64,000 nucleotides of DNA from Sphaerolaimus hirsutus (Eukaryota; Nematoda; Chromadorea; Monhysterida; Sphaerolaimidae): contig OZ038451.1 in NCBI GenBank assembly GCA_964036195.1, positions 5,026,529 to 5,090,528 of the forward strand, given 5' to 3'. Under the pieces are notes generated by a model, which was not told where the DNA came from, did no database searches, and saw nothing but the letters and a program-made list of their open reading frames with translations. Both the position numbers and the translations under genes were made by a program. Each line of letters begins with the position of its first letter. Position 1 is the stretch's first letter. Shown piece by piece: positions 7,243 through 61,767 of the stretch.

Positions 7243-7449
7243 ATGGATTATCCCACTTACGACATTTTTTCGTTGTGCATTAATAATACGTGTGCTTCTT
7301 ACGCTTTGGATATCAACGTCATTTTCGTTTATTATACGCTCTTTTTGCTGATGGGATTATTGTTCGCGTGTCTATTTGTTTCGCTAATTGCTGTGTGTTT
7401 CCCCGTTCGTGGAGGTGGTTTTGGGATTTCGGTAGAATTCGCTGAGTAA
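7243..7449 (+). CDS. LTR-encoded small membrane protein ORF (68 aa), 5' LTR copy
   Basis: The ORF has an ATG in good context (CATCATGG) and one strongly hydrophobic segment at about residues 25-53 (INVIFVYYTLFLLMG and following). I do not recognise its family. It lies in U3, upstream of the predicted start site, so only the 3' LTR copy would be inside the genomic RNA. The 3' LTR copy differs by two residue changes and no stop. Short length and very recent LTR divergence mean conservation cannot yet be used as proof of coding. Confidence 0.35.
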   Translation: MDYPTYDIFSLCINNTCASYALDINVIFVYYTLFLLMGLLFACLFVSLIAVCFPVRGGGFGISVEFAE

Positions 7450-7769
7450 AATTTGAATCGCCCGCCATTTTTTTTCGCGCTAAAACAAGTTTTTATAGTA
7501 TCTCGTGTGTTTTTCCTGTTCTTTTTATTCTTGTCGCATTCGTTCATTTTCTCATTTTCTATTTTCGTACTCGCTCTTGTTCCCATCCCGATTTTTGGCG
7601 CGTGAATTCTTTGTGTTTTTGTGTAGTTGATCGACGTATCCTGTAAACTGACGCCGTGAATAATTTTAGGTATGCCCGTTTTAAAATTCCGTGTGTCCGT
7701 AAAATCGTTTGTAAGCATGCTTCTCGTGGTATGTGGAAGTGTTGTCTGGACTTGGCTTATGTTGTTGCG

Positions 7770-7810
7770 TATAAAAGCGTACCGTAATTTAGAGTAGGGG
7801 TCGATTCAGT
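7770..7810 (+). promoter_or_regulatory. LTR core promoter: TATA box and TCAGT initiator
   Basis: TATAAAAG is at 7770-7777, and the animal initiator-like word TCAGT is at 7806-7810. The spacing is slightly longer than the usual 30 bases. The 3' LTR has the same TATAAAAG at 23036-23043. This sets the likely U3/R boundary. Confidence 0.6.
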
Positions 7811-7939
7811 CGAAATTGCTTCGGTTTCATTTTCTTGGAGTTTTTTCAAAGGTTTTGTGCCGCTGGTTAGAAACTCGCTCTCAGTGTGTTCCCTGTGTTC
7901 TATCTGAATGTGTGAATTCTGAGTCTAAAAATCGCCTAA

Positions 7940-7945
7940 AATAAA
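7940..7945 (+). terminator. LTR polyadenylation signal AATAAA
   Basis: AATAAA follows the predicted start by about 130 bases, giving a compact R region. The equivalent used in the 3' LTR is at 23206-23211. Confidence 0.55.
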
Positions 7946-8238
7946 ATCTCTTCTAAAAACTTCGGACCCCTTGGTGTAAATTAGACATTCAACTAATTGC
8001 TGGTGCGTTGATAAAAACGCCATTCGCTAAAAAGCTAACTTAATTGACGTAGCGTACACCTGTGATATTCACTTCGGTGAATTCACCATTGTGCGTTGCG
8101 AATTCAATCGGTAGTCGCTTTTCCGTTGCCTTACTTTGTCGCTCATCCAACGGGTAGGTGTGAGATCGGTAAAACTTGGCAGTTTGCCATAGTGGAATTT
8201 GGTTGAGTAAAAAGTAGCCGGTGAAAATTCATGACAAC

Positions 8239-8257
8239 TGGTAGCAGCGAGTGGTTT
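8239..8257 (+). other. Primer-binding site (TGGTAGCAG...)
   Basis: Two bases after the 5' LTR comes TGGTAGCAGCGAGTGGTTT. The first nine bases are complementary to a tRNA 3' end CTGCTACCA, the end of animal initiator-methionine tRNA. Beyond that the match to the initiator tRNA is imperfect (about 16 of 19 by eye). The tRNA identity is an inference; the position is exactly as expected for minus-strand priming. Confidence 0.75.
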
Positions 8258-8275
8258 GTTTAATATTCCCAGTGA

Positions 8276-8761
8276 GTTCAGGCGACTGATCACCGTTTGA
8301 CAATCGCTGGTGAGAACAAACGAACCACCGCCCGGCTGGAGGAACGGAAGGCTACCCGATCGACGCAACCGATAAGCACAGATATTTTTGTTTTGGGACG
8401 TGAAACTGACAAAATTATTAGTGGGCAAAAAAGGGAAAAGCGGAAAAGTAAGAAAAAATCGAAATCGGTTCAGTTCAGTACGGACGCGCACTGTTCTGAA
8501 CCGGGAACCGCTGAGTTGAGTGACGAACCTAACGACTTTGACGTCAACTGCTGGGTGGACGCGGAAGGACCGGTCCCTGAAAGAGGTGCGGAGGAGTCAT
8601 TCCCGACCTTTGAGCAAGGCAAGCCAAGTGCGGGTGCGGAGGTGCCATTCCCGACCGCAGGGCAAAGTAAGTTAGGGCACCGAAGCGCGAGTGCCGGGTA
8701 CCGAAGCGCGAGTACCCAGTCGTCGAGTGAGTGTGTGCTTTTCCGGTATTCTACTTTGAGT
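8276..8761 (+). other. ATG-less open extension in frame with Gag (162 codons)
   Basis: The Gag frame is open from 8276, just after the primer-binding site, but has no ATG until 8762. The encoded sequence has a lysine/arginine run (KREKRKSKKKSKS) and short repeats around GHRSASAGYRSAS. It may be a leader, a non-AUG-initiated extension, or reached by splicing. It ends at a 22-base motif shared with the leader of the helicase block. Confidence 0.5.
8739..8760 (+). promoter_or_regulatory. Shared 22-base motif before the gag ATG
   Basis: TTTTCCGGT, two variable bases, then TCTACTTTGA and a purine. The same motif occurs at 15989-16010, just before the first ATG of the helicase block, with three differences in 22 bases. 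It is pyrimidine-rich and ends in AG (TTTGAG here, TTTGAAG there), so it resembles a 3' splice site. A start-site or translation signal is also possible. Confidence 0.55.
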
Positions 8762-11700
8762 ATGGCGCATGCGAGCGGTAGTGGTGTGAACACGGGTCCC
8801 GATGTGGTGCAATTGTTGATTCAAGCGAAAAATTTGACTTTGAATCAAATTAATTTGTCGATAGTGGGGAATTCGGTTCAGGGGTCAGAATGGAACCTTA
8901 GTCAGGTTGTGACTCAAACGGTGAGTATTGCCGCTTATTTGTATAATCAGCGACCCATGAGTTCTTTGGAAAATGGGAACATGAGTGATAATGACGAAAA
9001 ATTAGTGTCATTAGTAAAGTTAGGTGTTGACTGCTATAATTTGCGAAATGATGTGAGTCAAATTGCGGACGCGATTAATGCATTTGCCGAGTATATTCAT
9101 TTAGAAAAGCCTGACATGCAAGCGATTAATTCCATAATTAGCGCTGTTTCTAATTCGGGAGGGTGCTCTACCGCTACCACACCACCTATACCTGCTGTGA
9201 GTATGATTGCTACTAGTAGGGAGGGTTATGCTGCTGCCATGACCGCGCTTACTGGACAGGTGATACCATTTAAGGGGCGCGCTGATGATAAATTTGCTGA
9301 TTGGCGTAAAAATTGGGACGCAGTTTGTGAGGCGTTGCAAATTCCGACGGATGAGCGAAAATCGCTGCTTCCGGTTTATTTGCGTGACAGCGCGCGTTCG
9401 ATTTACATGTCGCATAAGAGTGAATTGATCAATTTGGATTATGAGGAGTTCATGGATGCTTTGGAACGTTACTATACCAACCCCATTTCGGAGCATCATG
9501 CGCAAAGGGAAGTAATTAGTAGTGAGCAGGGCGAAGATGAAGATGTGTTAAATTGGTCAGTGCGGCTGGAGAAGATTATAAAACGCGCTTTTCCGAAACT
9601 TTCAAAACTTGAACGCGAAAAGATGGCAGTGGCGAAATTTGTTAGTGGATTGTATCCTGACATTCGTAGGAATGTATCTATTACTGCTGGGGCTAAGTTT
9701 CAAGACGTAGTCAATAATGCGCGCACGCAAGAAAGTTTTCTGGAAATTGATAAGGACAAAGTGGGTGGTAAGAAAAAGTCAAAATCCAACGCTGAATTAG
9801 TTTCAGAAGCCACCAATTCGGTAATCGAGCGAATTTTTGCTTTAGGGGGTGCGGGAGCTTTCGGAAATTCCCCGCCCGTTCCGACGGCGGCGGAAAATCC
9901 AAAGTTTGAGGAACAGCAAGTGAAATTGGAAGAACTTTCTAGGCAATTAGAGGATAAGGATAAGCGTTTAGTTGACTTGGAAAAACAATTGATAGGTAAC
10001 AATGCTGCGAAACCAGTTTCCAAATTTAAGCCGCGTAAATTTGATGAGGGCTGTTATGAATGTGGGGCAGATGATCACTTTCGCTCTGATTGTCCTAAAT
10101 TGACAGAAGAGGAAAGAGCGCGCTTTAGAAATTTTCGGCGCGGGCCGTCGCAGCGACCAATGAATAACTTTAGAGGTCCAGCGAACATGATGCGCTCTGC
10201 ACAGCAACCTGTATATTCCATGCAAGCGGCGCCTTACCTGTATTATCCCCCTCCCGCGCAAGTGTCAACTACTAGTTGGTCTCCAGTGCAACAAGTTCAA
10301 TCATCGCAAATGGCCATTGCGGCCCCTCCGTCAACTGAATTGACTGCGTTAAATCCGACGCGCGTGTCTGCGAACTCAGTGAATCATGCACGCAGCGTGC
10401 AAGAAAGTAAGGAATATGTGCGCATGATTAGGGTTTTACCAGGTCTTGAAAGTTCGGATGAGGAAGCAGAGGATCCATGCAATCCGCCTGAAATAACGCC
10501 GCAAGAACATCAATTCATGCTCGAAAGAGAGGCTTGGATTATGCCTTGGGTTTATGCGCGTTCGTTAGATAGCATGATATTTCGAACTAAGTGGTGGGCT
10601 CAATTGCAACACATGGGTTTGCAGGGGTTAAATATTAGTGGGTTTTGTGAGCATGCTGATGAGCATCCGCATGACGACCCTGAGGACACGTTGACGTATG
10701 TTAAGTTAGCAGCGCTGTTAGAATTGACCATGCATACGTTTAGGTGTGAACCGCCGGACATTAGTTTGTCGCGAACGTCATCTGACTCTGAGTTGTATGT
10801 GTTGTCCGATTATTGTGAAGCGAGCGTGCCAACTTTGTACCGAACGTGGTCGGAACCGAGTATGTTGCCCAGTGTGTTGAACCGAGTGTTTTTCCTGTGC
10901 TGTCTATTTACGTTTTTTGCAAGTGCTGACGCCCTGGGTGTTCCAAGTGGTGGCGTTGTTAAGAAAAAAGGAGTGTCAGATGAGTGGATTTTGACTGTGC
11001 GGAATTTTCTTGAGGGATTTATCGCTGGAATGTGCACTTCCGTGTTTTTGAGATATATTCTGCCCGCTTTGTGTGAACTGGTGTTGTATTTAGTGTGCGC
11101 AGTGTGTGATTGGATAAAATTGAGAGTGTTGCGGTTTCAATTAAATCGCATGCAAGCGATAGAAAATAGGCGCAATCCTGCAAGGGGTGCGACTCCCGTG
11201 ACACCGCCGCAAAAGTTAAATCCAGTTAGCGTTGACAGTTCAGGGTATAGTGCTGATGTTGAAGAAACGCCAGTGAGTAGATTTAAGCGTTTGCCGCCGC
11301 TGCGCGTTCCAAAAGGTTCTGCCGTCATGGAAAAGGTGAATGTAGTCACGCTGACCAGTGAAGAAATTGCGAACATCAAAAGTATTACGGCTAAGCGTAA
11401 AGAACTCGTGCCAATTTACTATAGTCCGTCGATTACGGTAGAAATTGAGGGGAATGAATACAAAAGGTGTCTGTTGGACACAGGTGCGATGAGGTCATTG
11501 TGCAGCCCGCTGGTGTTGGCTAGGCATCGAAATAATTGCATAGCGTTTGATGAAGTCACGCCTGTGGGGGGATTGCAAAGCGCGTCTCAATGCAAATTGC
11601 AAATTGAGGGTCAGTTGGAACTTCAAGTGATGATTACCGGGAAAGCATTTTCTATTGTGTTTCAGGTGATTAGCGGTTTGTCGGACGATATTTTATTGGG

Positions 11701-12688
11701 CGCTGATGTGTTGAGACATATGGTTATTGATATGCCTGCGCGTGAGTTGCGAATTGAGAGTGGTGATGCGCGTAAAAAGTTGATCGTGCCTTTTGACAAC
11801 CCGCCGCCTGTAGTGCAAGAACGGCATGTTTATGCAGTTGTGACTGAACCGACTGAAATTAAGCCGCGGCATGAAACGATAATTAGTGCGAAATTATCTG
11901 AACCAATTGATGAATTGACGTTTGCGATTGAGCCTTTGAACGAATTTCATGTGAAAACGGGTGTGTTTGCAGCTAATGCTGTTTATGAAAGCGCGAGTGA
12001 ATTGTTTCCGGTGAGGTGTGTTAATGTGACTGAGGTGCCAGTAAAGTTGCAGGTGGGCCAGAAAATTGCCATCGTAGAGCCAGTGGAGTGTGTTTTACAA
12101 GTGCGTCGAGGTGATCCGCCTGCTGAGTGGGTGCGAGAGTGCCGCGAGCGTGATATGAGTTTTACCGATACTATACTTGAAACTAGTGAGGAAAAAGTAC
12201 CAACGGAGGGCACTGTACCTTCAAAAGCGGCGAATACAACTATGAAAGTGGTTTGTGCTGATGGGAGGGAAATGGATTTTGAAGTACCGGTTGAATTGGA
12301 CGAAATTAAGCGCCAGCAATTAAAAGAGTTGATTTTGACTCATCAGGATGCTTTCGCCAGGGATAAGTATGATTTGGGATACAGTGAACTGGTTGACTAT
12401 CGACTTCAGTTGACTAGTAAAATTCCGGTCGCGTGTCGAATGTATAGGTTGAGTTTGGATGACCAGCAGTACTTAGAAAAGCATTTAAGTTGCTTGCTCG
12501 AGCATGACGTCATTGAACACAGTACGAGTCCGTACTGCGCGCCGACATTAGTTGTTACTAAGCCGGATGGTGCCAAGCGCATGGTGATAGATTATCGACG
12601 ATTAAATGCAGTAGTTCACGCTCCCCAATTTCCGCTGCCCAGATTAGACGATACGATAGAGTCATTGCACAGTTGCAAATATTTTTAG
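8762..12688 (+). CDS. gag-pol: Gag-protease-RT (N-terminal part) polyprotein, 1308 aa to frame break
   Basis: Start chosen at the first in-frame ATG (AGTATGG). Numbering from that Met: a capsid-like helical region at 178-327, a coiled segment around 390, and a CCHC knuckle with C431, C434, H439, C444 for RNA binding. Then an unusual ~450-residue linker with hydrophobic segments at about 709-725 and 749-785. The aspartic protease has LLDTGA (D906) and a partner ILLGAD near 980. RT follows, including MVIDYRRLN at about 1274. The frame stops at TAG 12686-12688 inside RT, right after a five-T run; homology resumes at once in the +1 frame at 12687. In the family Gag and Pol are cleaved by the encoded protease and assemble into cytoplasmic particles. 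Confidence 0.92.
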   Translation: MAHASGSGVNTGPDVVQLLIQAKNLTLNQINLSIVGNSVQGSEWNLSQVVTQTVSIAAYLYNQRPMSSLENGNMSDNDEKLVSLVKLGVDCYNLRNDVSQIADAINAFAEYIHLEKPDMQAINSIISAVSNSGGCSTATTPPIPAVSMIATSREGYAAAMTALTGQVIPFKGRADDKFADWRKNWDAVCEALQIPTDERKSLLPVYLRDSARSIYMSHKSELINLDYEEFMDALERYYTNPISEHHAQREVISSEQGEDEDVLNWSVRLEKIIKRAFPKLSKLEREKMAVAKFVSGLYPDIRRNVSITAGAKFQDVVNNARTQESFLEIDKDKVGGKKKSKSNAELVSEATNSVIERIFALGGAGAFGNSPPVPTAAENPKFEEQQVKLEELSRQLEDKDKRLVDLEKQLIGNNAAKPVSKFKPRKFDEGCYECGADDHFRSDCPKLTEEERARFRNFRRGPSQRPMNNFRGPANMMRSAQQPVYSMQAAPYLYYPPPAQVSTTSWSPVQQVQSSQMAIAAPPSTELTALNPTRVSANSVNHARSVQESKEYVRMIRVLPGLESSDEEAEDPCNPPEITPQEHQFMLEREAWIMPWVYARSLDSMIFRTKWWAQLQHMGLQGLNISGFCEHADEHPHDDPEDTLTYVKLAALLELTMHTFRCEPPDISLSRTSSDSELYVLSDYCEASVPTLYRTWSEPSMLPSVLNRVFFLCCLFTFFASADALGVPSGGVVKKKGVSDEWILTVRNFLEGFIAGMCTSVFLRYILPALCELVLYLVCAVCDWIKLRVLRFQLNRMQAIENRRNPARGATPVTPPQKLNPVSVDSSGYSADVEETPVSRFKRLPPLRVPKGSAVMEKVNVVTLTSEEIANIKSITAKRKELVPIYYSPSITVEIEGNEYKRCLLDTGAMRSLCSPLVLARHRNNCIAFDEVTPVGGLQSASQCKLQIEGQLELQVMITGKAFSIVFQVISGLSDDILLGADVLRHMVIDMPARELRIESGDARKKLIVPFDNPPPVVQERHVYAVVTEPTEIKPRHETIISAKLSEPIDELTFAIEPLNEFHVKTGVFAANAVYESASELFPVRCVNVTEVPVKLQVGQKIAIVEPVECVLQVRRGDPPAEWVRECRERDMSFTDTILETSEEKVPTEGTVPSKAANTTMKVVCADGREMDFEVPVELDEIKRQQLKELILTHQDAFARDKYDLGYSELVDYRLQLTSKIPVACRMYRLSLDDQQYLEKHLSCLLEHDVIEHSTSPYCAPTLVVTKPDGAKRMVIDYRRLNAVVHAPQFPLPRLDDTIESLHSCKYF

Positions 12689-15491
12689 CAGTGTCGATAT
12701 CAATCAAGCGTTTTACAACATTGCGCTGCATCCGGATGATAGACATATTACGTCGTTTCGTAATTGTTTTGGTCAATTTCAGATGAAACGCTTGCCGATG
12801 GGATTAAAGTGTTCCCCGGCTTTAGCGCAGCGCTGTTTCGAAGTTACAATGGCTGGATTATTGCATCGAAATGTGTTGGTATATATAGATGATTTGCTCA
12901 TTTACAGTAGGTCATGGGAAGATCATTTGAGTGATATAAGTCAGGTTTTGTCGCGTTTGATAAGTAGCAGTTTTAAAATACACCCAAAAAAGTGTTTTTT
13001 CGCGCGCACAACTGCTGTTAAATTCCTGGGTTATATGGTAGGGCGTGAAGGGATTTGTATACCGGATGACAAGCGAAAGTATTTGAGTGATTGGCCGCTA
13101 CCTGTATGTGTGCGTGAAGTTAAAGCGTTTCTAGGCGCTGTTGGGTTTTTCCGGAGATTAATTCATAAATGTGCTGAATATGCCGCTCCCTTGTCTAATT
13201 TAACTCGAACAAAAACTGAATTAAGAACTGAAAAGTATAGCGGAAGTACTCCTGTAGATTTAAATGCGAACCCCGCCGCTTTGGAAGCTTTTAATAAGTT
13301 GAAAGTGATGGTGGCTGAAAGTCCCTGTATACAGTATCCTGATCCCAGTAAACCGTTCATAATTATTACCGATGCTTCTAAAGTTGCATTAGCTGGTATT
13401 TTAGTACAACGCGCTGAACCTGCCGCCGCTTTGCATGCGTGTTCATTTTATAGTCGAAAACTTTCTGAAGCGCAATCCCGATGGCCTGCAATTACGCAAG
13501 AAGCATGTGCTATTTTTGAGAGCATACGCAATTGGCATTGTTATTTAGCGGGCCGGCCGTTTGAAGTTTGGACTGATGCGAAAAGTATTTCATGGGTAAA
13601 AAATCCAAATTTGGAAACCCATCCCCATACGGGTTTGCACCGATTTGCGCTTGCTATTCAATCATATCAAGTTACTTTTAAGCATTTGCGTGGGAAAAGT
13701 AACGAATTGGCCGTTGCCTTGTCGCGCCGGCGTGATGCACCCGTTGAATTTGATGAGCGTGTTAATTTGGACGAAGCGTTTGAAGAATATGCATTTGATA
13801 TACCTGTTGATGATTTGGCGAGAATTTTGACTGAGGAAATGGCGTTGTTAACATCTGAGGAACATTTGGCTTGTCAAGCGGTAGCTAAGGCCATGGCGCG
13901 ATTGGCTGCTGCTCAAAATTGGCTGAAACATGCGAAAATGAAGTCTTTGGAACCGTCAGTTACGGTAGCTGCTGAACCGCCAGTGGCAAGCGTTGCTACT
14001 GTGCGGGCGCCGCATCCAATGACAATGCGTGTGCGAAGTAAAACGAAGGCGGAGTCCAATTCTGAAAATGCTTTGAAATTGCCGCCCAAAAGTGACGATG
14101 CGCCTAAATTAATGGCTGGTGGCCGCCGTTCTGTTCAATTAATTAAGAAACCGGAAAAACTCGGTGCTTTACCTCCTCCCATTACTCCGATTGAAGAGTT
14201 GTCGCGTTTGCAAAAAGAAGAACCGTATATAATTACAATTCGTCGCATGTGCGAGGAATCTACTTTGCGTAGGGCCCCACCGTTTTTCATTGATCAATTT
14301 GATGTGGTCAGGCGTGATGCAGACCCGTCAATATTAGTGGGTGAAAGGAAATACGACCCTGCGTGCATTCCCCAGTCACTAGTTGTCACTGTGTTAGAAT
14401 TGGCTCATAATCATCCCACTGCTGGACATTTAGGTGTGATGAAAACGTTTGAAAGATTGCGCGAATTTGCTTGGTTTACAAATATGCGTCCAGAATGCGC
14501 TAGGTGGGTTTCTACTTGCCCTTCGTGCAACGCGAAGAAAGGATTGCGCCGCTCGATGAAAACTCAAATTCAGAGCCGGAAAATCGCTAAGTTTCCTGGT
14601 GATTTTATTGCGATTGATGCAGTAGGGCCATTGCCAATTACCGAAAAAAGGAATGTGCATGTATTGGTATTTGTAGATCAATGTACGCGTTTTGGTTTAG
14701 CAGTGCCCGTTCCTAATTTGAAGCAAGATTCTGTGGCTATTGCGTTTTTGCAACATGTGTTACCGATTTTTGGTGTGCCCGCTGTAATCTTATCCGACAA
14801 TGCACCAAGCTTCATTGGCGGCATTTTTGCGGAATTGCTGCGTTATCTAAATACAGTGCAGCATAAGTGTTTCAATTATACGCCAAAGGGGAATGGTTTG
14901 GTTGAGCGTAGGAATGGCGTCTTAATGGAAATAATTTCACATTATGTGAATGGCTCGCATTCGGATTGGGACAAACACTTAGGCGCCGCTGTCTATGCGT
15001 ATAATACGTCTATGCACCCCTCTATGAAAGTGACGCCATATGCGTTGCTATTTGGATCAAATTCTCCGTCACTTTGGGAGCGTATGATCGAGCCGACGGG
15101 AAATGGCACCGATAAGACCGATAAGCCGATGGCGTACAGTCCCTTTGTGTCAAATTTAGACGCGCGACTTTCGGACGTCCGCACGGCCGCGCATTCGGCT
15201 TTACAGCGCGCGCAAGAAAAAGAGTGTTTTTATGCAAATCGCAGTGCGCGTCGCTTGAATTTGAAGCCCGGTCAATCAGTTCGTGTTTATTCTCCCCGAA
15301 TTCTTCGAAAGTTAGGCCGCGTTAAGAAATTCACGCATCATTATATTGGCCCGTATGAATGTTTAGATTATGTGCATCCCATAGTGACCGTGTTTAATAG
15401 GTTGTCTAAGAAAACTTATACCGTTCATGCTGATCGTGTTAAACTGACAAATGAGCCAGTTAATCCCACTTATTCGCAGATTTTCGGTTAA
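12687..15491 (+). CDS. pol: RT (C-terminal part)-RNase H-integrase of Ty3/gypsy-type Pol
   Basis: The frame is open from 12660; RT homology continues from 12687, and the first ATG is 12783. Numbering from 12783: the RT active site YIDD is at 34-37. RNase H has D197, E240 and D265. The integrase HHCC zinc finger has H544, H549, C579 and C582, and the catalytic triad is D612, D672, E708, exactly DD35E. The GPY/F module has GPY at 856-858 and the protein ends at TAA 15489-15491. All listed catalytic residues are intact. It makes cDNA from the element RNA and inserts it. It is separated from the upstream part by one apparent extra base, and a 528-base AT-rich spacer follows. Confidence 0.94.
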   Translation, partial: SSVDINQAFYNIALHPDDRHITSFRNCFGQFQMKRLPMGLKCSPALAQRCFEVTMAGLLHRNVLVYIDDLLIYSRSWEDHLSDISQVLSRLISSSFKIHPKKCFFARTTAVKFLGYMVGREGICIPDDKRKYLSDWPLPVCVREVKAFLGAVGFFRRLIHKCAEYAAPLSNLTRTKTELRTEKYSGSTPVDLNANPAALEAFNKLKVMVAESPCIQYPDPSKPFIIITDASKVALAGILVQRAEPAAALHACSFYSRKLSEAQSRWPAITQEACAIFESIRNWHCYLAGRPFEVWTDAKSISWVKNPNLETHPHTGLHRFALAIQSYQVTFKHLRGKSNELAVALSRRRDAPVEFDERVNLDEAFEEYAFDIPVDDLARILTEEMALLTSEEHLACQAVAKAMARLAAAQNWLKHAKMKSLEPSVTVAAEPPVASVATVRAPHPMTMRVRSKTKAESNSENALKLPPKSDDAPKLMAGGRRSVQLIKKPEKLGALPPPITPIEELSRLQKEEPYIITIRRMCEESTLRRAPPFFIDQFDVVRRDADPSILVGERKYDPACIPQSLVVTVLELAHNHPTAGHLGVMKTFERLREFAWFTNMRPECARWVSTCPSCNAKKGLRRSMKTQIQSRKIAKFPGDFIAIDAVGPLPITEKRNVHVLVFVDQCTRFGLAVPVPNLKQDSVAIAFLQHVLPIFGVPAVILSDNAPSFIGGIFAELLRYLNTVQHKCFNYTPKGNGLVERRNGVLMEIISHYVNGSHSDWDKHLGAAVYAYNTSMHPSMKVTPYALLFGSNSPSLWERMIEPTGNGTDKTDKPMAYSPFVSNLDARLSDVRTAAHSALQRAQEKECFYANRSARRLNLKPGQSVRVYSPRILRKLGRVKKFTHHYIGPYECLDYVHPIVTVFNRLSKKTYTVHADRVKLTNEPVNPTYSQIFG

Positions 15492-16019
15492 AAACCCTGA
15501 GATTTTCCGCTCTTCAACCTAAAGTGCTTCAAGTTAATTATTCCGTTCGAAAATTCAATTAAAATTTATTTTTGGATTATTCGCGTTTAATTCTGACCGT
15601 CAATTCGTGGTGAGTTCGGGGTTGCAAATTTGGTATTTTTGATTGTGCGCAAGGTAATTTTGAGGTAAAAAGTTGTTTTTTATGTAAAAGGTAAAGGTAA
15701 AACGCGCAAATTTTATCGGTGTTATTAATTGTTCGTTTCTAATTATCGCCGCAAGTTTAATTCGTTAGTTGTTCATACCATCGCATTTATTTCGTTCTAA
15801 ATTTGTTCTTTAATTTCATTCTCATTTTCGCCCATTTCGCAACAAAATAAAAATTATTTTTGGCGCAATACGTTCAACGTAGTGCGTTGAAAATAATTCG
15901 CAACTTTTCGATTAGGGTGTTGCTCAGACCTTCGTGCATTTCGGTGCCGACATTCTGGGTGGCGCATTTTAAGTAGCAATAAGTTGTGTTTTCCGGTGCT
16001 CTACTTTGAAGTGTGAAAT
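15492..16019 (+). other. AT-rich spacer between pol and the helicase block
   Basis: There is no ORF of note. It holds AACAAAATAAAAATT near 15841 and, at its end, the 22-base motif shared with the gag leader (15989-16010), nine bases before the next ATG. This is where a subgenomic RNA start or splice acceptor would be expected. Confidence 0.5.
15989..16010 (+). promoter_or_regulatory. Shared 22-base motif before the helicase-block ATG
   Basis: TTTTCCGGT, GC, TCTACTTTGA, A. It matches 8739-8760 at 19 of 22 positions and lies at a similar distance from its ATG. The repetition of one motif before the two coding blocks of an element is unlikely by chance and points to coordinated expression. Confidence 0.55.
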
Positions 16020-16754
16020 ATGACTAGTTCGGGTGGCGTACCCATGGGTGGGTATGGAGCGAGTTCCAGTTCGTACCGTGGCGGGCGCATAGCCAAAGCG
16101 CCGCTCAAGTCGTGGACTTCTCATGGAAAACAGGGCGGTGACACTATTCCGCCGCTGCCCTACAATCCTCCTCGAAACACCCGATCGACTTGTCCTGAAT
16201 TTGTCATCAACCAAAAGTTGTCGGGAATAGTGGATCGAGTTCACGTCGGTAACGAGCAGCGTCCTACCAGTTATCAATGCCACATTCGTTTCGACGGCGA
16301 TGCGCAGGCGCTTTTGGAAAGTTATCCGGAGTGGTCGGAAGCGGAAACGGCTTATCCCTTTTTCACCTATTCGGTCAACAAAGCGGAGCGTGCTCGTGAG
16401 CGGTCGGTGCAGAAAATTTTGAGGGAATATCGCGAGGCTAACGAAGCTTACGACATGTTTTTGCCGCTTGTCCGCCACGGCATGCATTTTGTCGCGACTG
16501 GTATCAGTAGGGTTAGCGCCAATCCAAAATATTGGGAATTGCGAGGCGTCACAATTATGAAAAATGACGCTCAAATGCCATTGTTTTTGGGCCGCCCTGT
16601 TGTCATTGTTTCGCAAGGACAGGTTGACCTCTCCGTCGATGAGCCAGCGTCGGAAACAGGGAGGACAGGAAAATCGCGAAGGATATCATCCTTATCCGGC
16701 CAAGTGGAGATATTTGCGTTTGAGGGCAGCGTTCACCCCTTCGCGGTACATTAG
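16020..16754 (+). CDS. N-terminal ORF of the helicase block (244 aa), unknown family
   Basis: The ORF starts with ATG and a Gly/Ser/Tyr-rich head, followed by a charged, folded-looking region (about residues 75-195, e.g. ERSVQKILREYREANEAYDM). I do not recognise a domain. It overlaps the next ORF (16564-20109) by 191 bases in the +1 frame. Protein-like sequence passes from this frame to the next near 16640-16665, so it is probably the N-terminus of the helicase protein split by a +1 shift. Two separate proteins cannot be ruled out. Its GC content is visibly higher than that of pol. Confidence 0.7.
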   Translation: MTSSGGVPMGGYGASSSSYRGGRIAKAPLKSWTSHGKQGGDTIPPLPYNPPRNTRSTCPEFVINQKLSGIVDRVHVGNEQRPTSYQCHIRFDGDAQALLESYPEWSEAETAYPFFTYSVNKAERARERSVQKILREYREANEAYDMFLPLVRHGMHFVATGISRVSANPKYWELRGVTIMKNDAQMPLFLGRPVVIVSQGQVDLSVDEPASETGRTGKSRRISSLSGQVEIFAFEGSVHPFAVH

Positions 16755-19700
16755 TGCACCCCCCTTCAAAGGCGCCGACGAGCGGGATCCGGGCCCTGAA
16801 AAGTTGATTTTTGCGCACAGCGAAAATGTCATGGAAAGTGACATACACCCGCACGCCAGACAATTAGGTGTGGCGCATGTAGAATATCACGCTTTTGATG
16901 ACGCCGGCAAAGTCAACAACTTTTATTGGGGTCATGCGTATGGCGTGCGTATTTTTTCGGCGCGGCAAATTGAGGCTGGTATGGAGTGGAAGGGTGAAAT
17001 GAATAGAAATTACCTCACCTCTCAGCTGCAGCTCCGTTCCATCTTTTTGGCCGCTGCTAACGTGTGTCACGAAGCGCATTTGCGATACACTGCGACTAGG
17101 GCGAAAGCGGTGCGCGCGCAGGTGACTTGGCAAAATGGGCCGCGGGGATTAATTGCGATAATTAGGTGGGAGCGCGTGCATTTGAATCCAGCTGCTGCGA
17201 TGCGCGACACGGCCGAGTGGCACAGGAATAAGGCGCAGGGCTACATGTTGAATTTTACTTCGCCCATGTCGTCCCTACAAATCGTCGAAGCTGATCCCCG
17301 GGGGGAAGAGCGTGCTCTGACTGGCCGCCCGCAAATAAATTTACGCACGGTCAGCGCCGACATCACTGCCGAGGCGGTGCAGCTGGTCGCCAAACCGGAT
17401 GTGTTGGTGCCGCAGGCGCTGTCGCCGCATTTGCTGCCCAATTGCGATTACATGGTGCGCGGTTCCGCTTTGTCGCCTAGCTACAATGGCCGCATGGAAA
17501 TTTTGGAGCGGTTGTGCATAATGGGGCCTAGTGGTTACCGGCCAACCGAGAGCAACACCGGAATGCTCGCTGCGGAAGACCAGGTCAAAATGGCGGTAGT
17601 GCTGCACAAGCAGTTGAACCAAGTTGAGACTGATTGGCAGCGCACGCTCGAAAAAATTGAGTCTGACGGGTTGTATGCCGAGGTGCGCAGAGGCACATGC
17701 GAAGATTTATTGCAAGCGCATCAGGGTGATTTTCGGCCGCAGGAGGGGCAGGGGCGTGTGATCGCATCAGTTATCAAGTCTGTGCGAAAAACTGCGCCGC
17801 TATTGTTGATGTGTGATTCACCGTTCGGTTCCGGTAAAACGACTGTGCAAAGTCAGTGTGCGTACGCGGTTGCGTTCAAATTTACTGAGAAAAATGACCC
17901 GCCGAACCCGCTGAAGAGGGAATTGCCCTCTGATGCAAACAAAAATGCGCTTTACCACTCCACAATGATTACTTGCAGTGTGAATTCGGCCGCTGATGAG
18001 TCTGCTAGACGATCGTTGCAAAGTTTGGCGGATATCGGTCTGCCTACTTTGGAAAGGGTCGTGGAAGTTTTGCTGCGCAGTAGGGAGACGTGGACTGCGA
18101 TGGATAACAAACCGAATTTCGAAACACCTGGCTATGCGCGTTTTTGTCAGGTGCGCGCTGTTTTCGCGATTCGCGTGCTGAGTCCATTGTTGGAAGTTGA
18201 CGATCGCTACGTCGATATGACGCTCCAGCAATTGCCGCTGCTGAATTTGATCGCGCAAAACATGCCCATGCATGTTATTCGATTGAATGACCACTGGCTA
18301 ACTGCTTATGAACGCTTTACCACTCAACGCCATATTTGTGACACTTTGAACGAGATCATCGCGAACAATCAGCACCCCGCCGACATTTTCGAAGCCATTC
18401 GGTCGCAGTTGCCTTTGGTTCGTTTGTCCATCGACGAAGACGACGAGGATGATTTGGTGCCACTGGACGATGGTCAAGAGGAAGGCGTGCAGGCGTGGGG
18501 GGCCGCGGCTGGCTTTGTCGATGACAACCAGGTGTGGGGCAAAATTTACAAGCGCGAAATGCGACGCCTCGTTAGGGTGGCTACTAGGTTGCATAAGGTG
18601 GTGTTGAATGTGCTGCAGCCAGGCCAAGTCCATGTGACCTTGGATTCATCGCGCGATAAGCGACTGCAAGTTTTGAAATATGCCGCGGTATTTGTGGACG
18701 AGGCGTCTCTGGCGGATGAAACTGCCATTTTTGGCGCTGTTTCAAACGCTCGACTCCCCCACAATGGCTTGGTGCTTTTGTTTGGCGATAGCAAGCAGTT
18801 GACCCGAATGGTCAGGCCGCATTCATGGATCGCCCCGATCCTGAAACCTGATCCCTCGTTGATCAACAGGTTGGTGGAAGGTGTGCTGTGCCCAATTCTG
18901 AAGCTCGAGACTGTTTTCCGCGGCCACGACGCGCTGATTCAAGCGAATTCTGTCGCTGCGTACGATGGCCAATTGCGCGCGTTTCACGAATACAGTCAGT
19001 GGCGAGATACTTTGCCGCTCATGGCTTGCGGTGCCGATCAGGTGCCTTTGTCTTCTGTGATCGTGCACATGGGTTTCGAAATGAGCGAGGGCGTGTCTGT
19101 TAAAAATTTGACGGAGGTAGACATTGTGGTGCGCGTTGTGCAGCAATTTGTCATTTTGGCGCTGAACAGCGAGGGCGAGAATGTCGTTCCGTGGAGTGAT
19201 TTAGAAAGCGCCGATTCGCTGCTGGTTGTGTGTTTCTATTCAGCGCAGGAGAGAAGAGTGATTGACGAATTGGTGCGATTGAGCTGGGCGCAGTTGTTAG
19301 GGGGTGAGGGGTTCCCTGGCTATTTAGCGACCCCAGCGTTTTGGCGGAAAAAAGTCATCACTGCTGATCGAGCGCAAGCTCGTGAAGCGCACGTGGTGAT
19401 TGTGTCATGTGTGAGGGGTAGCGCGCCGCGAGTGGACGCTACTGGGCACCCGTCGCAGCGCGAGCGCGATGTGATGGACAGAATTGGCTTTTTGGCGATG
19501 CCGGAGCGGTGCAACGTGGCCACGTCTCGCGCCAAAACGGCCAGAGTCGTGATCATGAACGCCGCTACCGTGCTGCATTCTGAATTTTTCTGGCGCTTTG
19601 TGGCGGTGGAATTAGGAAAGGGACGCGTTTTTGCGTACCACGAGCGACATTTGTGGGAGAGTAACCCGTTGGCTAGGTTTCTGGGCCACTGGAGAAGTGC

Positions 19701-20109
19701 CCCGGTCGATCTGCAAGAACCCGCTCCGCCCGTGCAAGAAGAAGAAAATGAGGTTCCGCCGCCGCCGGAAGAAGTTCAGGAGGTGGATGTGAGCGAACAA
19801 CGAGCGTCCCCTCAGCCAGACACTGACGTCGTCGTTCCCGCTCTCGATTCCCCAGACGTGCAAATGTTGCCGCCAGAAGAGCAGGAGGAGGAGTCAGAGA
19901 AAGTTCAGCCGCGCGCGGATGAAAAAGCGAGTTGTTCTCGGTCTCGGCGTCGGTATCGCGGTCGTCGTCGCTCTCCCTCGTCGAGTTCTTCCTCTTCCTC
20001 TAGTTCTTCGTCGGGTTCGTCAAAATCGGGATCGAGTGAGACCGATTCGGCCTCGGAGTCTGAACGCGCGCCGCCCGTACCGGCACACCAACAGAAAACG
20101 CTCCAGTGA
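16564..20109 (+). CDS. Superfamily-1 Upf1-like helicase, 1181 aa
   Basis: Numbering from the ATG at 16564: motif I PFGSGKT 420-426 (K425 binds phosphate), motif II DEAS 712-715 (Mg-ATP hydrolysis), motif III GDSKQL 741-746, motif IV around FYSAQ 891-895, motif V around ADRAQAREAHVV from 934 with VSCVRG, motif VI ERCNVATSRAK 981-991 with the arginine finger. The order and the RIGFLAMPERCNVATSRAK pattern match Upf1/DNA2/NAM7-like SF1B proteins, which move 5' to 3' on RNA or DNA. The 285 residues between motifs I and II are longer than in typical Upf1. About 420 residues precede motif I without a recognised domain. The C-terminus is Pro/Glu-rich, then Arg-rich with a 12-Ser run near 1139. An internal ATG at 16639 is an alternative start. 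It sits in the position where gypsy relatives carry env. Confidence 0.9.
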   Translation: MTLKCHCFWAALLSLFRKDRLTSPSMSQRRKQGGQENREGYHPYPAKWRYLRLRAAFTPSRYISAPPFKGADERDPGPEKLIFAHSENVMESDIHPHARQLGVAHVEYHAFDDAGKVNNFYWGHAYGVRIFSARQIEAGMEWKGEMNRNYLTSQLQLRSIFLAAANVCHEAHLRYTATRAKAVRAQVTWQNGPRGLIAIIRWERVHLNPAAAMRDTAEWHRNKAQGYMLNFTSPMSSLQIVEADPRGEERALTGRPQINLRTVSADITAEAVQLVAKPDVLVPQALSPHLLPNCDYMVRGSALSPSYNGRMEILERLCIMGPSGYRPTESNTGMLAAEDQVKMAVVLHKQLNQVETDWQRTLEKIESDGLYAEVRRGTCEDLLQAHQGDFRPQEGQGRVIASVIKSVRKTAPLLLMCDSPFGSGKTTVQSQCAYAVAFKFTEKNDPPNPLKRELPSDANKNALYHSTMITCSVNSAADESARRSLQSLADIGLPTLERVVEVLLRSRETWTAMDNKPNFETPGYARFCQVRAVFAIRVLSPLLEVDDRYVDMTLQQLPLLNLIAQNMPMHVIRLNDHWLTAYERFTTQRHICDTLNEIIANNQHPADIFEAIRSQLPLVRLSIDEDDEDDLVPLDDGQEEGVQAWGAAAGFVDDNQVWGKIYKREMRRLVRVATRLHKVVLNVLQPGQVHVTLDSSRDKRLQVLKYAAVFVDEASLADETAIFGAVSNARLPHNGLVLLFGDSKQLTRMVRPHSWIAPILKPDPSLINRLVEGVLCPILKLETVFRGHDALIQANSVAAYDGQLRAFHEYSQWRDTLPLMACGADQVPLSSVIVHMGFEMSEGVSVKNLTEVDIVVRVVQQFVILALNSEGENVVPWSDLESADSLLVVCFYSAQERRVIDELVRLSWAQLLGGEGFPGYLATPAFWRKKVITADRAQAREAHVVIVSCVRGSAPRVDATGHPSQRERDVMDRIGFLAMPERCNVATSRAKTARVVIMNAATVLHSEFFWRFVAVELGKGRVFAYHERHLWESNPLARFLGHWRSAPVDLQEPAPPVQEEENEVPPPPEEVQEVDVSEQRASPQPDTDVVVPALDSPDVQMLPPEEQEEESEKVQPRADEKASCSRSRRRYRGRRRSPSSSSSSSSSSSSGSSKSGSSETDSASESERAPPVPAHQQKTLQ

Positions 20110-20566
20110 GGAGGAAGTGATGGAGGTGGAACAGGAGCAAAGGGAACAAGGTGCTCAACAACAGGAACCGGCAATGGAAGGTCAACGGCAAGAGCAAGAA
20201 CCAGAGCCAGATACTGAAGAGGCCAACAATGCAATTATTGGAGAAAAATTGGATGAGTTAATTCAAATGGCGGGCGAGTTGAACACCGAGCTGGACGCTG
20301 AGCGACAGCAACAGTCCATGAGCCCAGACCGGCAGATGCTAAGACAAATGGACGCCATCCAGGAGGAGGCCAATGAATCTGCTGAGCCCATGCAGGAAGA
20401 TGAGCAGGAGCAGCCTGAGGAAGTGGCCGCACAGCAGCTGCAGCAACCTGTTCAGGTTGTTGTAGTTGGCGCGTCACCACCACCGCAAGAAGAACAGAGT
20501 CCGCCCCCGCCAGTGACTCCAACTTTGGCAGGTTTGGAGCCAGAGGAGGAGATGGAAGCGGAGTAA
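19919..20566 (+). CDS. Gln/Glu-rich acidic C-terminal ORF of the helicase block (215 aa frame)
   Basis: The frame overlaps the helicase ORF by 191 bases, again in the +1 frame. The first 65 codons look like an out-of-frame shadow of the Ser/Arg tail. From NRKRSSEEEVMEVEQEQ (about 20087) onward it is a plausible protein: acidic, Gln/Glu-rich, with coiled-coil-like heptads (ANNAIIGEKLDELIQMAGEL) and a Pro-rich acidic end (stop TAA 20564-20566). Either it is the true C-terminus of the helicase protein behind a +1 shift near 20080, or a small protein from the ATG at 20120. No family is recognised. Confidence 0.6.
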   Translation: MKKRVVLGLGVGIAVVVALPRRVLPLPLVLRRVRQNRDRVRPIRPRSLNARRPYRHTNRKRSSEEEVMEVEQEQREQGAQQQEPAMEGQRQEQEPEPDTEEANNAIIGEKLDELIQMAGELNTELDAERQQQSMSPDRQMLRQMDAIQEEANESAEPMQEDEQEQPEEVAAQQLQQPVQVVVVGASPPPQEEQSPPPPVTPTLAGLEPEEEMEAE

Positions 20567-20864: not shown

Positions 20865-23502
20865 TGTGAGCAAAAGTGGGTGTCCAAAAATTGTAAAATT
20901 TCAAAAATTTTAAGCGTAAATGTATATGTAGTACACTTAATGAATTTATGTAGAGGGTTGTTTACACTTCCGAGCTTACAATAATTTAAACATTTCAGTT
21001 CTACTTCGACGTTGGTTTTGGGCGATTCGGTGGGCGAACAACGTGGCGTTGACGTTTTCGGCTACGTCGCTGCGCTACGTCGGCAACGTGCATTTCCGTT
21101 TTTCCGGTGCCCCATTGTGTTATGTGTGTTTTTTTTTGGCCAAGGAAAGGATTGGAGGTATTGAGGATCTGACACAAAGTTGACGCTGTGATGTAAATAG
21201 TTGTTTTTATTTGTTTAGAATTTTTTTAATTAGGTAGTTTTTTTTAAGAAAGTGAGACAAGTGAATTGGCAACAATTTTAATTGTGACAGTTTAATTTGA
21301 AAGTATTTTTTCTATTTCTACTAGCGGTTTAGATTGCATAACAAAGTTTCAGTTATTTTTCTCTAAGTAAAAATAGTGACGCTGCAGTTACGTGTCGTAG
21401 TGCGTGAATGGTCAGTGATAACTGAGGGCACATAGGTTGAATTTTGACTAACTTTCGCTGCATTCTTTTGAAGTGCAGGCCGTGGCTATTGATCTAGTAT
21501 GTACTGTGCATTACTGCATTTCTGGATTGGGAAACAAAAGTTAATTTACAAGTGATTTTACAAAGGTACACTGATTATAGAGGTGCGATGATGATTGGTG
21601 TTGAAAATGAGAGGTAATTAAAAGAATCGAGTCTAACTCGACAGGCATGATCGCATGTCTAAATGCCTACTCCCTTGGCTTGTTGTGAGAACAGCCCAGT
21701 CCGCCGATCTCATCGAAACAAGCACCCATACAGTGACAAGTGTACTTATTTTTGAGTGAATTGAGCAGTTCGGTATTTTCGGGGTGTGGTTTTTGCACAG
21801 TGTGTATGGGATCAGAAAGCCGTGGCTGACTAATTAACATTCTGGTAGCAGAATGAGTGGTGTAGCAGCGAGAGTGGTCATTTTCGTGATAAGTGCCTTC
21901 GGTAGTTAATGGCTGTTGCGTTTCGGCATGTGGCAGTGGATTCACTTGAGTTTGTTTTTAGTTTTAAACTTCAAAAAAATCATGCAATCTAAACATGCAT
22001 TTGAGCTACAAAGATTGAAATTTATAAACTTTCAAGTTGCCAATCATTTGCGTTCGTATTTCTATTAAGCGTTATACCGACTTCATATTCATTTTAACTT
22101 TAGGTTTTATAGGGAATAGGTAAAACTCGAGTATGTTAATTTTTATTTGATTTTACGTTTGCAACTTCGTTATTTTTTATCTACCTAATCCTAGATTGAT
22201 TTTTTTTATTTATTTCCCTTTCCCCTAGAAAACTGATAACTTGACATTTGGATATTTAGGAATTTATGCAAATTTCGTGGTTGATCTTTATTATACAAAG
22301 AGATGAAATAATAAGCCGCTTGTTTTTCCTGTTTTTTCCCCGAATATTTTGATAAGTGTAAAGGTGATCTGATTTGAGTGCGTATTTATTTTATCACTCT
22401 GGTAGAATTTCCGCTAAGAGTCTTTAAAATGGTACCGTAATTCATTTTTTCCTTGACAGTCAGTGTGAAAGTTAATTTCGTTCGCCTTACCGGTATCCTA
22501 ATCTCATCATGGATTATCCCACTTACGACATTTTTTCGTTGTGCATTAATAATACGTGTGCTTCTTACGCTTTGGATATCAACGTCATTTTCGTTTATTA
22601 TACGCTCTTTTTGCTGATGGGATTATTGTTCGCGTGTCTATTTGTTTCGCTAATTGATGTGTGTTTCCCCGTTTGTGGAGGTGGTTTTGGGATTTCGGTA
22701 GAATTCGCTGAGTAAAATTTGAATCGCCCGCCATTTTTTTTCACGCTAAAACAAGTTTTTATAGTATCTCGTGTGTTTTTCCTGTTCTTTTTATTCTTGT
22801 CGCATTCGTTCATTTTCTCATTTTCTATTTTCGTACTCGCTCTTGTTCCCATCCCGATTTTTGGCGCGTGAATTCTTTGTGTTTTTGTGTAGTTGATCGA
22901 CGTATCCTGTAAACTGACGCCGTGAATAATTTTAGGTATGCCCGTTTTAAAATTCCGTGTGTCCGTAAAATCGTTTGTAAGCATGCTTCTCATGGTATGT
23001 GGAAGTGTTGTCTGGACTTGGCTTATGTTGTTGCGTATAAAAGCGTACCGTAATTTAGAGTAGGGGTCGATTCAGTCGAAATTGCTTCGGTTTCATTTTC
23101 TTGGAGTTTTTTCGAAGGTTTTGTGCCGCTGGTTAGAAACTCGCTCTCAGTGTGTTCCCTGTGTTCTATCTGAATGTGTGAATTCTGAGTCTAAAAATCG
23201 CCTAAAATAAAATCTCTTCTAAAAACTTCGGACCCCTTGGTGTAAATTAGACATTCAACTAATTGCTGGTGCGTTGATAAAAACGCCATTCGCTAAAAAG
23301 CTAACTTAATTGACGTAGCGTACACCTGTGATATTCACTTCGGTGAATTCACCATTGTGCGTTGCGAATTCAATCGGTAGTCGCTTTTCCGTTGCCTTAC
23401 TTTGTCGCTCATCCAACGGGTAGGTGTGAGATCGGTAAAACTTGGCAGTTTGCCATAGTGGAATTTGGTTGAGTAAAAAGTAGCCGGTGAAAATTCATGA
23501 CA
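20865..23502 (+). repeat. 3' long terminal repeat (2638 bp)
   Basis: It begins TGTGAGC and ends CATGACA, followed by the CTAG duplication. It is about 99.7% identical to the 5' LTR outside two small indels. It carries the TATA box at 23036 and AATAAA at 23206-23211, which would end the element transcript. Confidence 0.95.
22509..22715 (+). CDS. LTR-encoded small membrane protein ORF (68 aa), 3' LTR copy
   Basis: The same ORF as at 7243-7449, with Ala-to-Asp and Arg-to-Cys changes near the end of the hydrophobic segment. This copy lies in U3 of the 3' LTR, inside the predicted genomic RNA. No family is recognised. Confidence 0.35.
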   Translation: MDYPTYDIFSLCINNTCASYALDINVIFVYYTLFLLMGLLFACLFVSLIDVCFPVCGGGFGISVEFAE

Positions 23503-23526
23503 CTAGACTGCAAAGCGACGCAATGT

Positions 23527-60463: not shown

Positions 60464-61330
60464 ATATTGTGCCTACACACACTAGTTTTCACCGTGACTT
60501 CGTGTGAAAACTGAAATTTTTTAAAGTGCAAATTAATCAACACGGTTGAAGTACTTAATTAATTTGAAATTTGAATTGAAGTTAATGAAAGTTAAACTTT
60601 GAAAATTTCAAAACTAAAACACGTAAATAGTCGGCGGACATCCTACAAAATCGGAGAGTTAGAATTAGCTCGCGAATCGAGCGAACACGAAACTTGTGTC
60701 CCACCCGGATGCTCGGAATTGAAAAAGAAAATACCATATAAAAAGAAAAACGGACATTTCGCCGCGTCTGGCCGCGTCTGTGCGTGCCACACCTTATTTA
60801 TCTACATTTTCAACATTGCTGGCTGCACGCGAACGAATTTTACCGTTTAAACTGTTTTGTTTTTATTTTATTTTTCAGTTTCGTGGGCTCCGTTCCAATG
60901 GAAGAGTCCCCGTATGAGAACTTGGCAGCTGGCCGAAATTTCGAATTCCGCTATAAATGTGAATAAAATAGGCTAACACTAGCTATATAACCATGTATAT
61001 AAATGGAAATAGCGATTATAAAGGTGGAAATTGGCAAAGTAGAGGAAATTTTAACGAATTTTAGCTAAATTTGAGTTTTCACTCTAATTCGTATAATACG
61101 CAACTGGTAAGTGGGATGAGGGCCAAGTTCTGATAAGTGTCCCGATCCGTTCCAATCCTTAAAATATTGCGACGCAAAAATGACGTCATGCATTCTCCAC
61201 TGGAGAGATTGACGCAAATGTTTGTAGGGCGATACGTCTGCCGACTTTTTTAGCATACAATAAGAGTAGGTTGAATGTCGCCATGTCAGTTTTCACATCG
61301 GTCACGGTGAAAACTAGTGTGTAGGGCCAT
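60464..61330. mobile_element. ACACACTAGTTTTCACC foldback with nested AAGTCGGC element
   Basis: The outer ends are GCCTACACACACTAG and CTAGTGTGTAGGGCC. The nested element at about 60629-61248 is the reverse-oriented relative of 38348-38970. The left duplicate reads ATTATATTGTTTTTGTGAGC at about 5515 without this insertion. Confidence 0.75.
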
Positions 61331-61767
61331 TGTTTTCGTGAGCACCACAACGTGCCAAAACCTGTCGTTCTGGAGGTATGCCGTCCTATTTCAAGCAATA
61401 CGGTACTTGAGTGCAAGGCCACGTAATATTGCACGCGTTTTCGCAAATGTCCCCCTCGAGCAAATAAATATTGGGAAAGCCGTCTGAAAACGTAACGTTC
61501 CAAAAATCCATCCCAAAAAATACAGCCGCCCGGCTGCGGCGACCCGAAATGCAAGAAGTGAATGGAAAAAGATGTGAAAAGCGGGAAAAATGTTCCGGGT
61601 TCAAACGGGACACCGATTTCGATACAGACAAAACATACTGATTTTCTAAATAGTTCTGACAAATTGAACAGACCCTTTATCCGATCTCAACAACTATTTT
61701 TGACGGAAGCAAGCATAGCAAACCGCGTTACCGGAATGTTGAAACTTCGGGAACCCGGGATCAATGG

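What the first reader, a model, noticed from the sequence alone, without database searches (positions are those of the whole stretch)
16020..20566. Ty3/gypsy-type retrotransposon that encodes a Upf1-like SF1 helicase in the env position
Seen: between intact LTRs, after a complete pol, lies a 4.5-kb coding block with SF1 motifs I (PFGSGKT), II (DEAS), III (GDSKQL), IV, V and VI (CNVATSRAK). Known: gypsy relatives may carry env there; helicases are typical of Helitrons and RNA viruses, and I know of no described Ty3/gypsy-type element with a Upf1-like one. Inference: the element captured or evolved a helicase used in its own RNP, reverse transcription or RNA stability. If it recurs in other copies it defines a new retroelement lineage.
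Basis: partly seen in the sequence, partly recalled or inferred. Interest (0 to 1): 0.93.

Follow-up and report, generated by a model that had tools for sequence, protein, structure and literature searches.

The report
Giant LTR retrotransposon with own helicase
A 17.9-kb retrovirus-like jumping element carries, after its reverse-transcriptase gene, a large extra gene whose protein bears the sequence motifs of a UPF1/MOV10-type helicase and likely handles the element's own RNA; MOV10 itself is known to hold retroelements down, so an element that brings such an enzyme along would be a new twist if other copies have it too.

Summary
The element is one unit of 17,903 bp (5600-23502): 2.64-kb LTRs (8 substitutions, 2 short indels between them), TG...CA ends, a 4-bp target duplication (CTAG) and a diverged empty site elsewhere in the window. 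[quoted passage not shown] its 1181-aa ORF carries SF1 motifs I-VI. Pol is not complete in this copy (the frame breaks inside RT), and the block is spread over three overlapping frames.

The helicase belongs to the UPF1/MOV10 (SF1B) group. Its best-scoring relatives are MOV10/SDE3-like (profile comparison E 7.9e-17), but subfamily is unresolved and it is extremely diverged. It keeps 38 of 48 positions invariant in 16 relatives but only 41 of 214 others, which fits a long-constrained enzyme better than a recently transduced host gene. UPF1- and MOV10-specific N-terminal domains and env families were not found.

Recurrence could not be tested: the genome search did not complete (16 tries), and the viral, plasmid and prokaryote scans found no relative. 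No paper seen describes a UPF1/MOV10-group helicase in a Ty3/gypsy-type element; virus-like SF1 helicases in LINEs and Ty1/copia fusions are in print. Likely role, inferred: remodelling and protecting the element's own RNA.

The parts
5596..5599 (.). target-site duplication, left copy (CTAG)
   Evidence: the same 4 bp follow the 3' LTR at 23503-23506
5600..8236 (+). 5' LTR, 2637 bp, TGTGAG...ATGACA
   Evidence: 99.06% identical to the 3' LTR over 2646 columns
8239..8254 (+). likely primer-binding site TGGTAGCAGCGAGTGG; first 9 bases fit the 3' end of eukaryotic initiator tRNA-Met (tRNA recalled, not tested)
   Evidence: sequence
8276..12688 (+). ORF: gag (PNMA-like capsid 9281-9598, zinc knuckle 10049-10099), protease (11432-11719, with a DTGA motif), N-terminal part of RT; two hydrophobic segments at 10862-10918 and 11018-11074
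   Evidence: capsid (E 1.9e-5), zinc knuckle (E 0.0027) and protease (E 0.044) hits are below Pfam's curated cut-offs
12660..15491 (+). ORF: rest of RT, RNase H, integrase (zinc domain and core); the frame break to the previous ORF lies inside RT
15492..16019 (+). AT-rich spacer (35% GC) between pol and the 3' block
16020..16754 (+). ORF, first part of the 3' block, 244 aa; no Pfam or NCBIfam match at E up to 1, one PHROG match at E 0.51
16561..20109 (+). ORF with SF1B helicase (1181 aa from ATG 16564): motif I 17827-17841, Ia 17974-17997, II 18697-18708, III 18784-18801, V 19375-19386, VI 19513-19533
19930..20058 (+). Arg/Ser-rich tail of the helicase ORF (SCSRSRRRYRGRRRSPSSSS...), predicted to target nucleus or RNA-protein particles
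   Evidence: function inferred
19793..20566 (+). ORF, acidic Glu/Gln/Pro-rich end of the 3' block in a third frame
20865..23502 (+). 3' LTR, 2638 bp
23503..23506 (.). target-site duplication, right copy (CTAG)
61329..61427 (.). empty site: diverged repeat copy without the element; joined flanks align without gap (74 of 81 bases left of the junction, 14 of 18 right), and colinearity resumes at 61425 (96.2% over 530 columns) after a 0.25-kb segment present only beside the element

Best explanation
The block is a gene of a 17.9-kb Ty3/gypsy-type LTR element (5600-23502) for a UPF1/MOV10-group SF1B helicase that likely travels with the element's own full-length RNA and remodels that RNA-protein particle, which would protect it from host decay and silencing. 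Shown: the element with the block sits between matching LTRs with a 4-bp target duplication and an empty site, so all of it entered as one unit; the ORF has motifs I-VI; it keeps most of the positions that are invariant in its relatives. Inferred: (1) the protein is made separately from gag-pol, since a stop and a 528-bp spacer part them; (2) the Arg/Ser-rich tail takes it to the nucleus or to RNA-protein particles; (3) it is an active ATPase that clears proteins and structure from an unusually long element RNA. The nearest tested precedent in this position is the CERV protein of the C. elegans Ty3/gypsy-type element Cer1, required for export of genomic RNA; CERV is not described as a helicase.
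For: LTRs, ends, TSD; empty site; gag-pol domains; motifs I-VI; AAA_12 E 2.1e-19; hhalign against 14 MOV10-like sequences E 7.9e-17 over 260 columns for motifs II-VI and, run apart on residues 380-700, E 2.8e-4 with probability 41% for motifs I-Ia; 38 of 48 invariant positions kept against 41 of 214 others in residues 705-1012; Arg/Ser-rich tail; Cer1 CERV precedent (PMC10309623, passages).
Against: One copy only; recurrence untested because the genome search did not complete. Motif V has lost two residues invariant in the relatives (F937A, G939A), so activity is not certain. The relatives in that count were chosen by similarity to the query. This copy has frame changes in RT and in the 3' block, so it may be dead. 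No expression, splicing or localisation data. The N-terminal part before motif I matches no family. GC3 is 0.60 in the helicase against 0.45 and 0.39 in the two gag-pol ORFs, which could also mean a separate, later origin. With the whole ORF as query the PDB match is weak (NAM7 E 0.006), and the structure model failed (mean pLDDT 40).
Confidence: 0.42

Rival explanations
1. Counter-defence: the element's helicase competes with or blocks the host's own MOV10-class silencing helicase (MOV10 in animals; in worms the MOV10-like ERI-6/7, recalled), so that the element escapes RNA silencing.
For: Best-scoring relatives are MOV10/SDE3-like: 16 of 17 hits carry PF21634, the MOV-10 beta-barrel; core scores 26-42 bits against 28 for a Sen1-like protein, 20 for NAM7/UPF1 and 12-13 for SEN1-type chains. 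MOV10 inhibits retroviruses and human LINE1, Alu and SVA (PMC3475670, start of abstract in a search listing). Virus-like SF1 helicases of LINEs weakly suppress RNA silencing in a plant assay (PMC6338049, passages).
Against: The MOV10 N-terminal domains are not found in this ORF, although the same library finds two of them in P0034 and four in P0040. Motifs I-VI are kept, which a pure decoy would not need. The relatives were picked by similarity to the query, so their lead over UPF1 is biased.
Confidence: 0.25
2. Replication aid: the helicase unwinds the long, structured RNA template (or RNA-DNA hybrid) during reverse transcription inside the particle, as large RNA viruses encode their own helicases (recalled).
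For: Element of 17.9 kb with 2.64-kb LTRs; motifs I-VI; the same idea was put forward for LINE helicases (PMC4686597 and PMC6338049, passages).
Against: The gene is parted from gag-pol by a stop and 528 bp, so nothing shown brings the protein into the particle. Other giant elements (Ogre, Burro; PMC6431247, passages) are not described there as having a helicase.
Confidence: 0.2
3. Passenger: a host helicase gene was picked up by this copy alone and is not part of a lineage.
For: Different codon-position composition from gag-pol; no second copy seen; no relative in the scans made.
Against: A recent host-gene capture should match known animal helicases closely, but the first protein search gave none at E 1e-3 among 7993 scored candidates, and the core is at most 30% identical to its best relative over 270 columns, with a branch of about 8 changes per column. 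Helicase-invariant positions are kept. The host is unknown, so its own helicases could not be compared.
Confidence: 0.08

Closest known systems
Cer1 of C. elegans (Ty3/gypsy-type; CERV in the env position)
   Same: [quoted passage not shown] CERV is nuclear and required for export of genomic RNA (PMC10309623, passages)
   Different: CERV is not described as a helicase (0 occurrences of the word in that main text)
Bdelloid LTR retrotransposons (Vesta, Juno) with enzymatic ORF3
   Same: Enzyme gene instead of env after pol (PMC5408684, passages)
   Different: Enzymes are GDSL esterase/lipase and DEDDy exonuclease; the word helicase occurs only in its reference list
SF1 helicases in insect LINEs (TRAS, Jockey) and in Ty1/copia fusions of Aedes aegypti and Leptopilina boulardi
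   Same: Retroelements with an added SF1 helicase; those of LINEs keep motifs I-VI (PMC5563155, PMC4686597, PMC6338049, passages)
   Different: Those are of RNA-virus (virga-like) type, in non-LTR elements or fused in frame to copia RNase H or integrase; here a separate 3' gene of the UPF1/MOV10 group in a Ty3/gypsy-type element, with no Viral_helicase1 hit
Ogre and Burro giant gypsy-like elements
   Same: Very long LTRs or great size, extra coding regions (PMC6431247, passages)
   Different: No helicase described for them in the passages read
MOV10/SDE3 and UPF1 helicases
   Same: SF1B core, motifs I-VI
   Different: Their specific N-terminal domains not found here (MOV10 control); host genes, not element genes

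Membership tests
Ty3/gypsy-type LTR retrotransposon | LTRs with TG...CA and target-site duplication | tested here: met
Ty3/gypsy-type LTR retrotransposon | domain order PR-RT-RH-IN after gag | tested here: met
   RT, RH and IN above curated cut-offs; capsid, zinc knuckle and protease below them
Ty3/gypsy-type LTR retrotransposon | RT groups with Ty3/gypsy clades in a tree | not tested
   only names of some of 32 pol relatives seen: 17.6- and 297-type Pol of Araneus, 17.6-type of Trichinella, others from plants, a diatom and a tick
Ty3/gypsy-type LTR retrotransposon | tRNA primer-binding site | tested here: inconclusive
   TGGTAGCAGCG at 8239 read; tRNA comparison recalled
env-bearing element (errantivirus-like) | 3' gene for a fusion glycoprotein with transmembrane anchor | tested here: not met
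   no such Pfam hit at E up to 1 in any of the three 3' ORFs; by hydropathy no segment in the first ORF, one (1.63, residue 849) inside the helicase core, and one in the third frame only where it overlaps the helicase ORF. Signal peptides were not tested
SF1B UPF1-like helicase group | motifs I-VI and AAA_11/AAA_12 domains | tested here: met
   but AAA_11 at 22.8 bits is below its cut-off of 27
UPF1 proper | N-terminal Cys/His zinc domain | tested here: not met
   no such family at E up to 1; no UPF1 control was run
MOV10/SDE3 | MOV10-specific N-terminal domains (PF21632-PF21635) | tested here: not met
   none at E up to 1, although 16 of 17 core relatives carry PF21634 and the same library finds MOV-10 domains in P0034 and P0040
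MOV10/SDE3 | branches within the MOV10 clade | tested here: inconclusive
   in a 22-row tree the query lies outside both the MOV10 rows (94/94) and the UPF1/SEN1 rows (97/90), on a branch too long to place
virus-like SF1H of LINEs/copia fusions | Viral_helicase1 (PF01443) type helicase | tested here: not met
   no hit at E up to 1
a new retroelement lineage | block present in other full-length copies | not testable with these tools
   The genome search unanswered in 16 tries

The most novel reading that the evidence does not exclude
A lineage of giant Ty3/gypsy-type retroelements has an obligate third gene for its own UPF1/MOV10-group RNA helicase: it has taken the class of enzyme with which hosts police retroelement RNA and put it to work for its own genome.
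Probability: 0.4. Interest if true: 0.87.

Novelty: new variant of a known kind. Interest (0 to 1): 0.7.

Why it matters
LTR elements live or die by what happens to their RNA in the cell, and host helicases such as MOV10 (PMC3475670, search listing) and UPF1 (recalled) act on that RNA. An element with its own helicase of that group would be a natural test of which step (export, decay, silencing, reverse transcription) limits retrotransposition. It would also add a helicase to the short list of enzymes known in the env position, and give a case of a highly diverged yet constrained SF1B helicase outside cellular genes.

Tried and rejected
Recurrence: asked genome search (own genome, PF13086) 16 times, never answered; the search for related loci in viral contigs with helicase, pol, gag-pol and a core alignment and in genome contigs with the helicase, exact patterns and tblastn on plasmids: nothing confirmed. 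These collections are viral, plasmid or prokaryotic, and their answers say that records of the window's own genome may be left out, so absence says little.

Host: no tRNA and no Rfam family at gathering score in the window, so the host is unknown; pol relatives named by sources (spider, Trichinella and others) are too distant to tell. A worm host, which some of my literature searches assumed, is not shown.

Structure: one AlphaFold2 job on an alignment in which motif I was misplaced gave mean pLDDT 40 and was not used; no fold search was made. Tree: helicase placement unresolved because of its long branch. PADLOC gave two MkoA hits (E 6.4e-14 and 1e-12), read as the shared helicase core only. 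NCBIfam gave IGHMBP2 family at E 3e-9, 35.9 bits against a cut-off of 348.9. A PDB search with 18577-19170 found nothing at E up to 10. One search translated a third frame near the RT break and told nothing.

Considered and rejected: Helitron (no Rep or PIF1 hit); env gene (no glycoprotein family or clear anchor); chance ORF.
Full report
What is there. Self-comparison of the window finds two direct repeats, 5600-8236 and 20865-23502, 99.06% identical; they differ by 8 substitutions, one 9-bp and one 8-bp indel. Each begins TGTGAG and ends ATGACA. CTAG stands before the left and after the right repeat. The joined flanks, with one CTAG, align without a gap across the junction to 61329-61427 at 88.9%: 74 of 81 bases match left of the junction and 14 of 18 right of it; after a 0.25-kb segment found only beside the element, colinearity resumes at 61425 with 96.2% over 530 columns. 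This is a diverged copy of the same host repeat without the element. So 5600-23502, block included, entered as one unit of 17,903 bp.

Coding. ORF 8276-12688 has a PNMA-like capsid (E 1.9e-5, 24.6 bits against a cut-off of 25), a zinc knuckle (E 0.0027) and an aspartyl protease (E 0.044), all below cut-off; ORF 12660-15491 has the rest of RT (E 6.8e-18, from profile position 117 on), RNase H (E 4.7e-26 and 4e-25) and integrase (E 1.2e-15 and 3.1e-9). The frame changes inside RT, so this copy's pol is not complete. After a 528-bp spacer of 35% GC come three overlapping ORFs: 16020-16754, 16561-20109 and 19793-20566. All three frame changes go the same way. Whether they are mutations, assembly errors or programmed shifts cannot be told from one copy; the one inside RT is unlikely to be programmed.

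The helicase. The 1182-codon open stretch compares with a mean of 194 and a maximum of 361 in 200 first-order Markov simulations of the region. Motifs I, Ia, II, III, V and VI are at residues 422, 471, 712, 741, 938 and 984; a motif-IV-like RGH is at 786. Pfam: AAA_12 E 2.1e-19; AAA_11 E 9.2e-5, below cut-off. A protein search with residues 1-1060 found 0 of 7993 scored candidates at E 1e-3; with the core, residues 640-1020, 17 of 7991 at E up to 10, the best at E 4.0e-6 and 1.0e-3. Of the 17, 16 carry PF21634 (the MOV-10 beta-barrel) and 5 are named mov-10-B. In the PDB the whole ORF matches NAM7 at E 0.006; the core alone matches NAM7 at E 1.7e-4 and UPF1 at E 4e-4, summed over stretches of which none passes alone. 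With all fragments cut to one core, MOV10-like rows score 26-42 bits, a Sen1-like row 28, NAM7 20, SEN1-type 12-13, and the best of 100 shuffled fragments 2.9. Profile comparison with 14 MOV10-like sequences gives E 7.9e-17 over 260 columns, motifs II-VI; motifs I-Ia align only when that part is run apart, E 2.8e-4, probability 41%. The MOV10 lead is biased, since the rows were found by similarity, and the tree puts the query outside both MOV10 and UPF1/SEN1 rows on a branch of 8 changes per column, too long to place.

Constraint. In residues 705-1012, leaving out columns with more than 3 gaps, the helicase keeps 38 of 48 positions invariant in the 16 other rows and the commonest residue at 41 of 214 of the rest. 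Residues of motifs II, III and VI are among those kept; lost are, among others, two in motif V (F937A, G939A). This pattern is expected of an enzyme that diverged far under selection, and it argues against a recent transduction of a host gene. It is one copy against chosen relatives, not a dN/dS test.

What was not found. No UPF1 zinc domain, MOV10 N-terminal domain, viral helicase family or env glycoprotein family at E up to 1; the MOV10 models do fire on P0034 and P0040. The helicase ORF ends in an Arg/Ser-rich tail and the block in an acidic stretch. GC3 is 0.60 in the helicase and 0.45 and 0.39 in the two gag-pol ORFs, so the gene may have a different origin from gag-pol.

Mechanism. Shown: position within the inserted unit, motifs, retention of invariant positions. 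Inferred: separate expression; nuclear or RNP location by the tail; action on the element's own RNA. I prefer remodelling and protection of the element's RNA (0.42), because the motifs needed for activity are kept, and because CERV of Cer1, an env-position protein that has been tested, serves genomic RNA export (PMC10309623, passages). Counter-defence against MOV10-class silencing (0.25) and help in reverse transcription (0.2) remain open.

Literature. Searches of a held open-access library: (listings only, except the papers named with passages). Virus-like SF1 helicases in LINEs and in Ty1/copia fusions are in print (PMC4686597, PMC5563155, PMC6338049; passages), and so are enzymatic ORF3s in bdelloid LTR elements (PMC5408684, passages). 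I saw no report of a UPF1/MOV10-group helicase in a Ty3/gypsy-type element; most subscription journals and Repbase are not in the library, so one may exist.

Limits. One copy, unknown host, no second locus. The own-genome search was asked 16 times and never answered. The collections scanned for further loci are viral, plasmid or prokaryotic.

Verdict. Real, not chance, and unusual: a new variant of a known kind (LTR element with a non-env gene in the env position). Interest 0.70; if it recurs in other copies, higher.

Noticed in passing
10862-10918 and 11018-11074: Two hydrophobic segments in the gag-protease ORF between zinc knuckle and protease. An env-like region between gag and protease is described for planarian Burro elements (PMC6431247, passages).
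   Followed up: no
12660-12688, 16561-16754, 19793-20109: All three frame changes of the element go in the same direction; mutation, assembly error or programmed shift not told apart.
   Followed up: partly
7332-7805 (-) and 22598-23071 (-): Antisense 157-aa open frame in both LTRs; only a weak Pfam match of the second copy (CaM-KIIN, E 0.013), probably chance.
   Followed up: partly
2299-5134, 23770-26581 and 55472-64000: Regions flanking the insertion are largely colinear with 55472-64000 at about 93-96% identity in the longer pieces: a diverged segmental repeat that holds the empty site.
   Followed up: partly
48621-49704: Perfect tandem repeat, three copies of a 361-bp unit.
   Followed up: no
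51944-54261: Nested direct repeats of about 150-890 bp, 86-100% identical.
   Followed up: no
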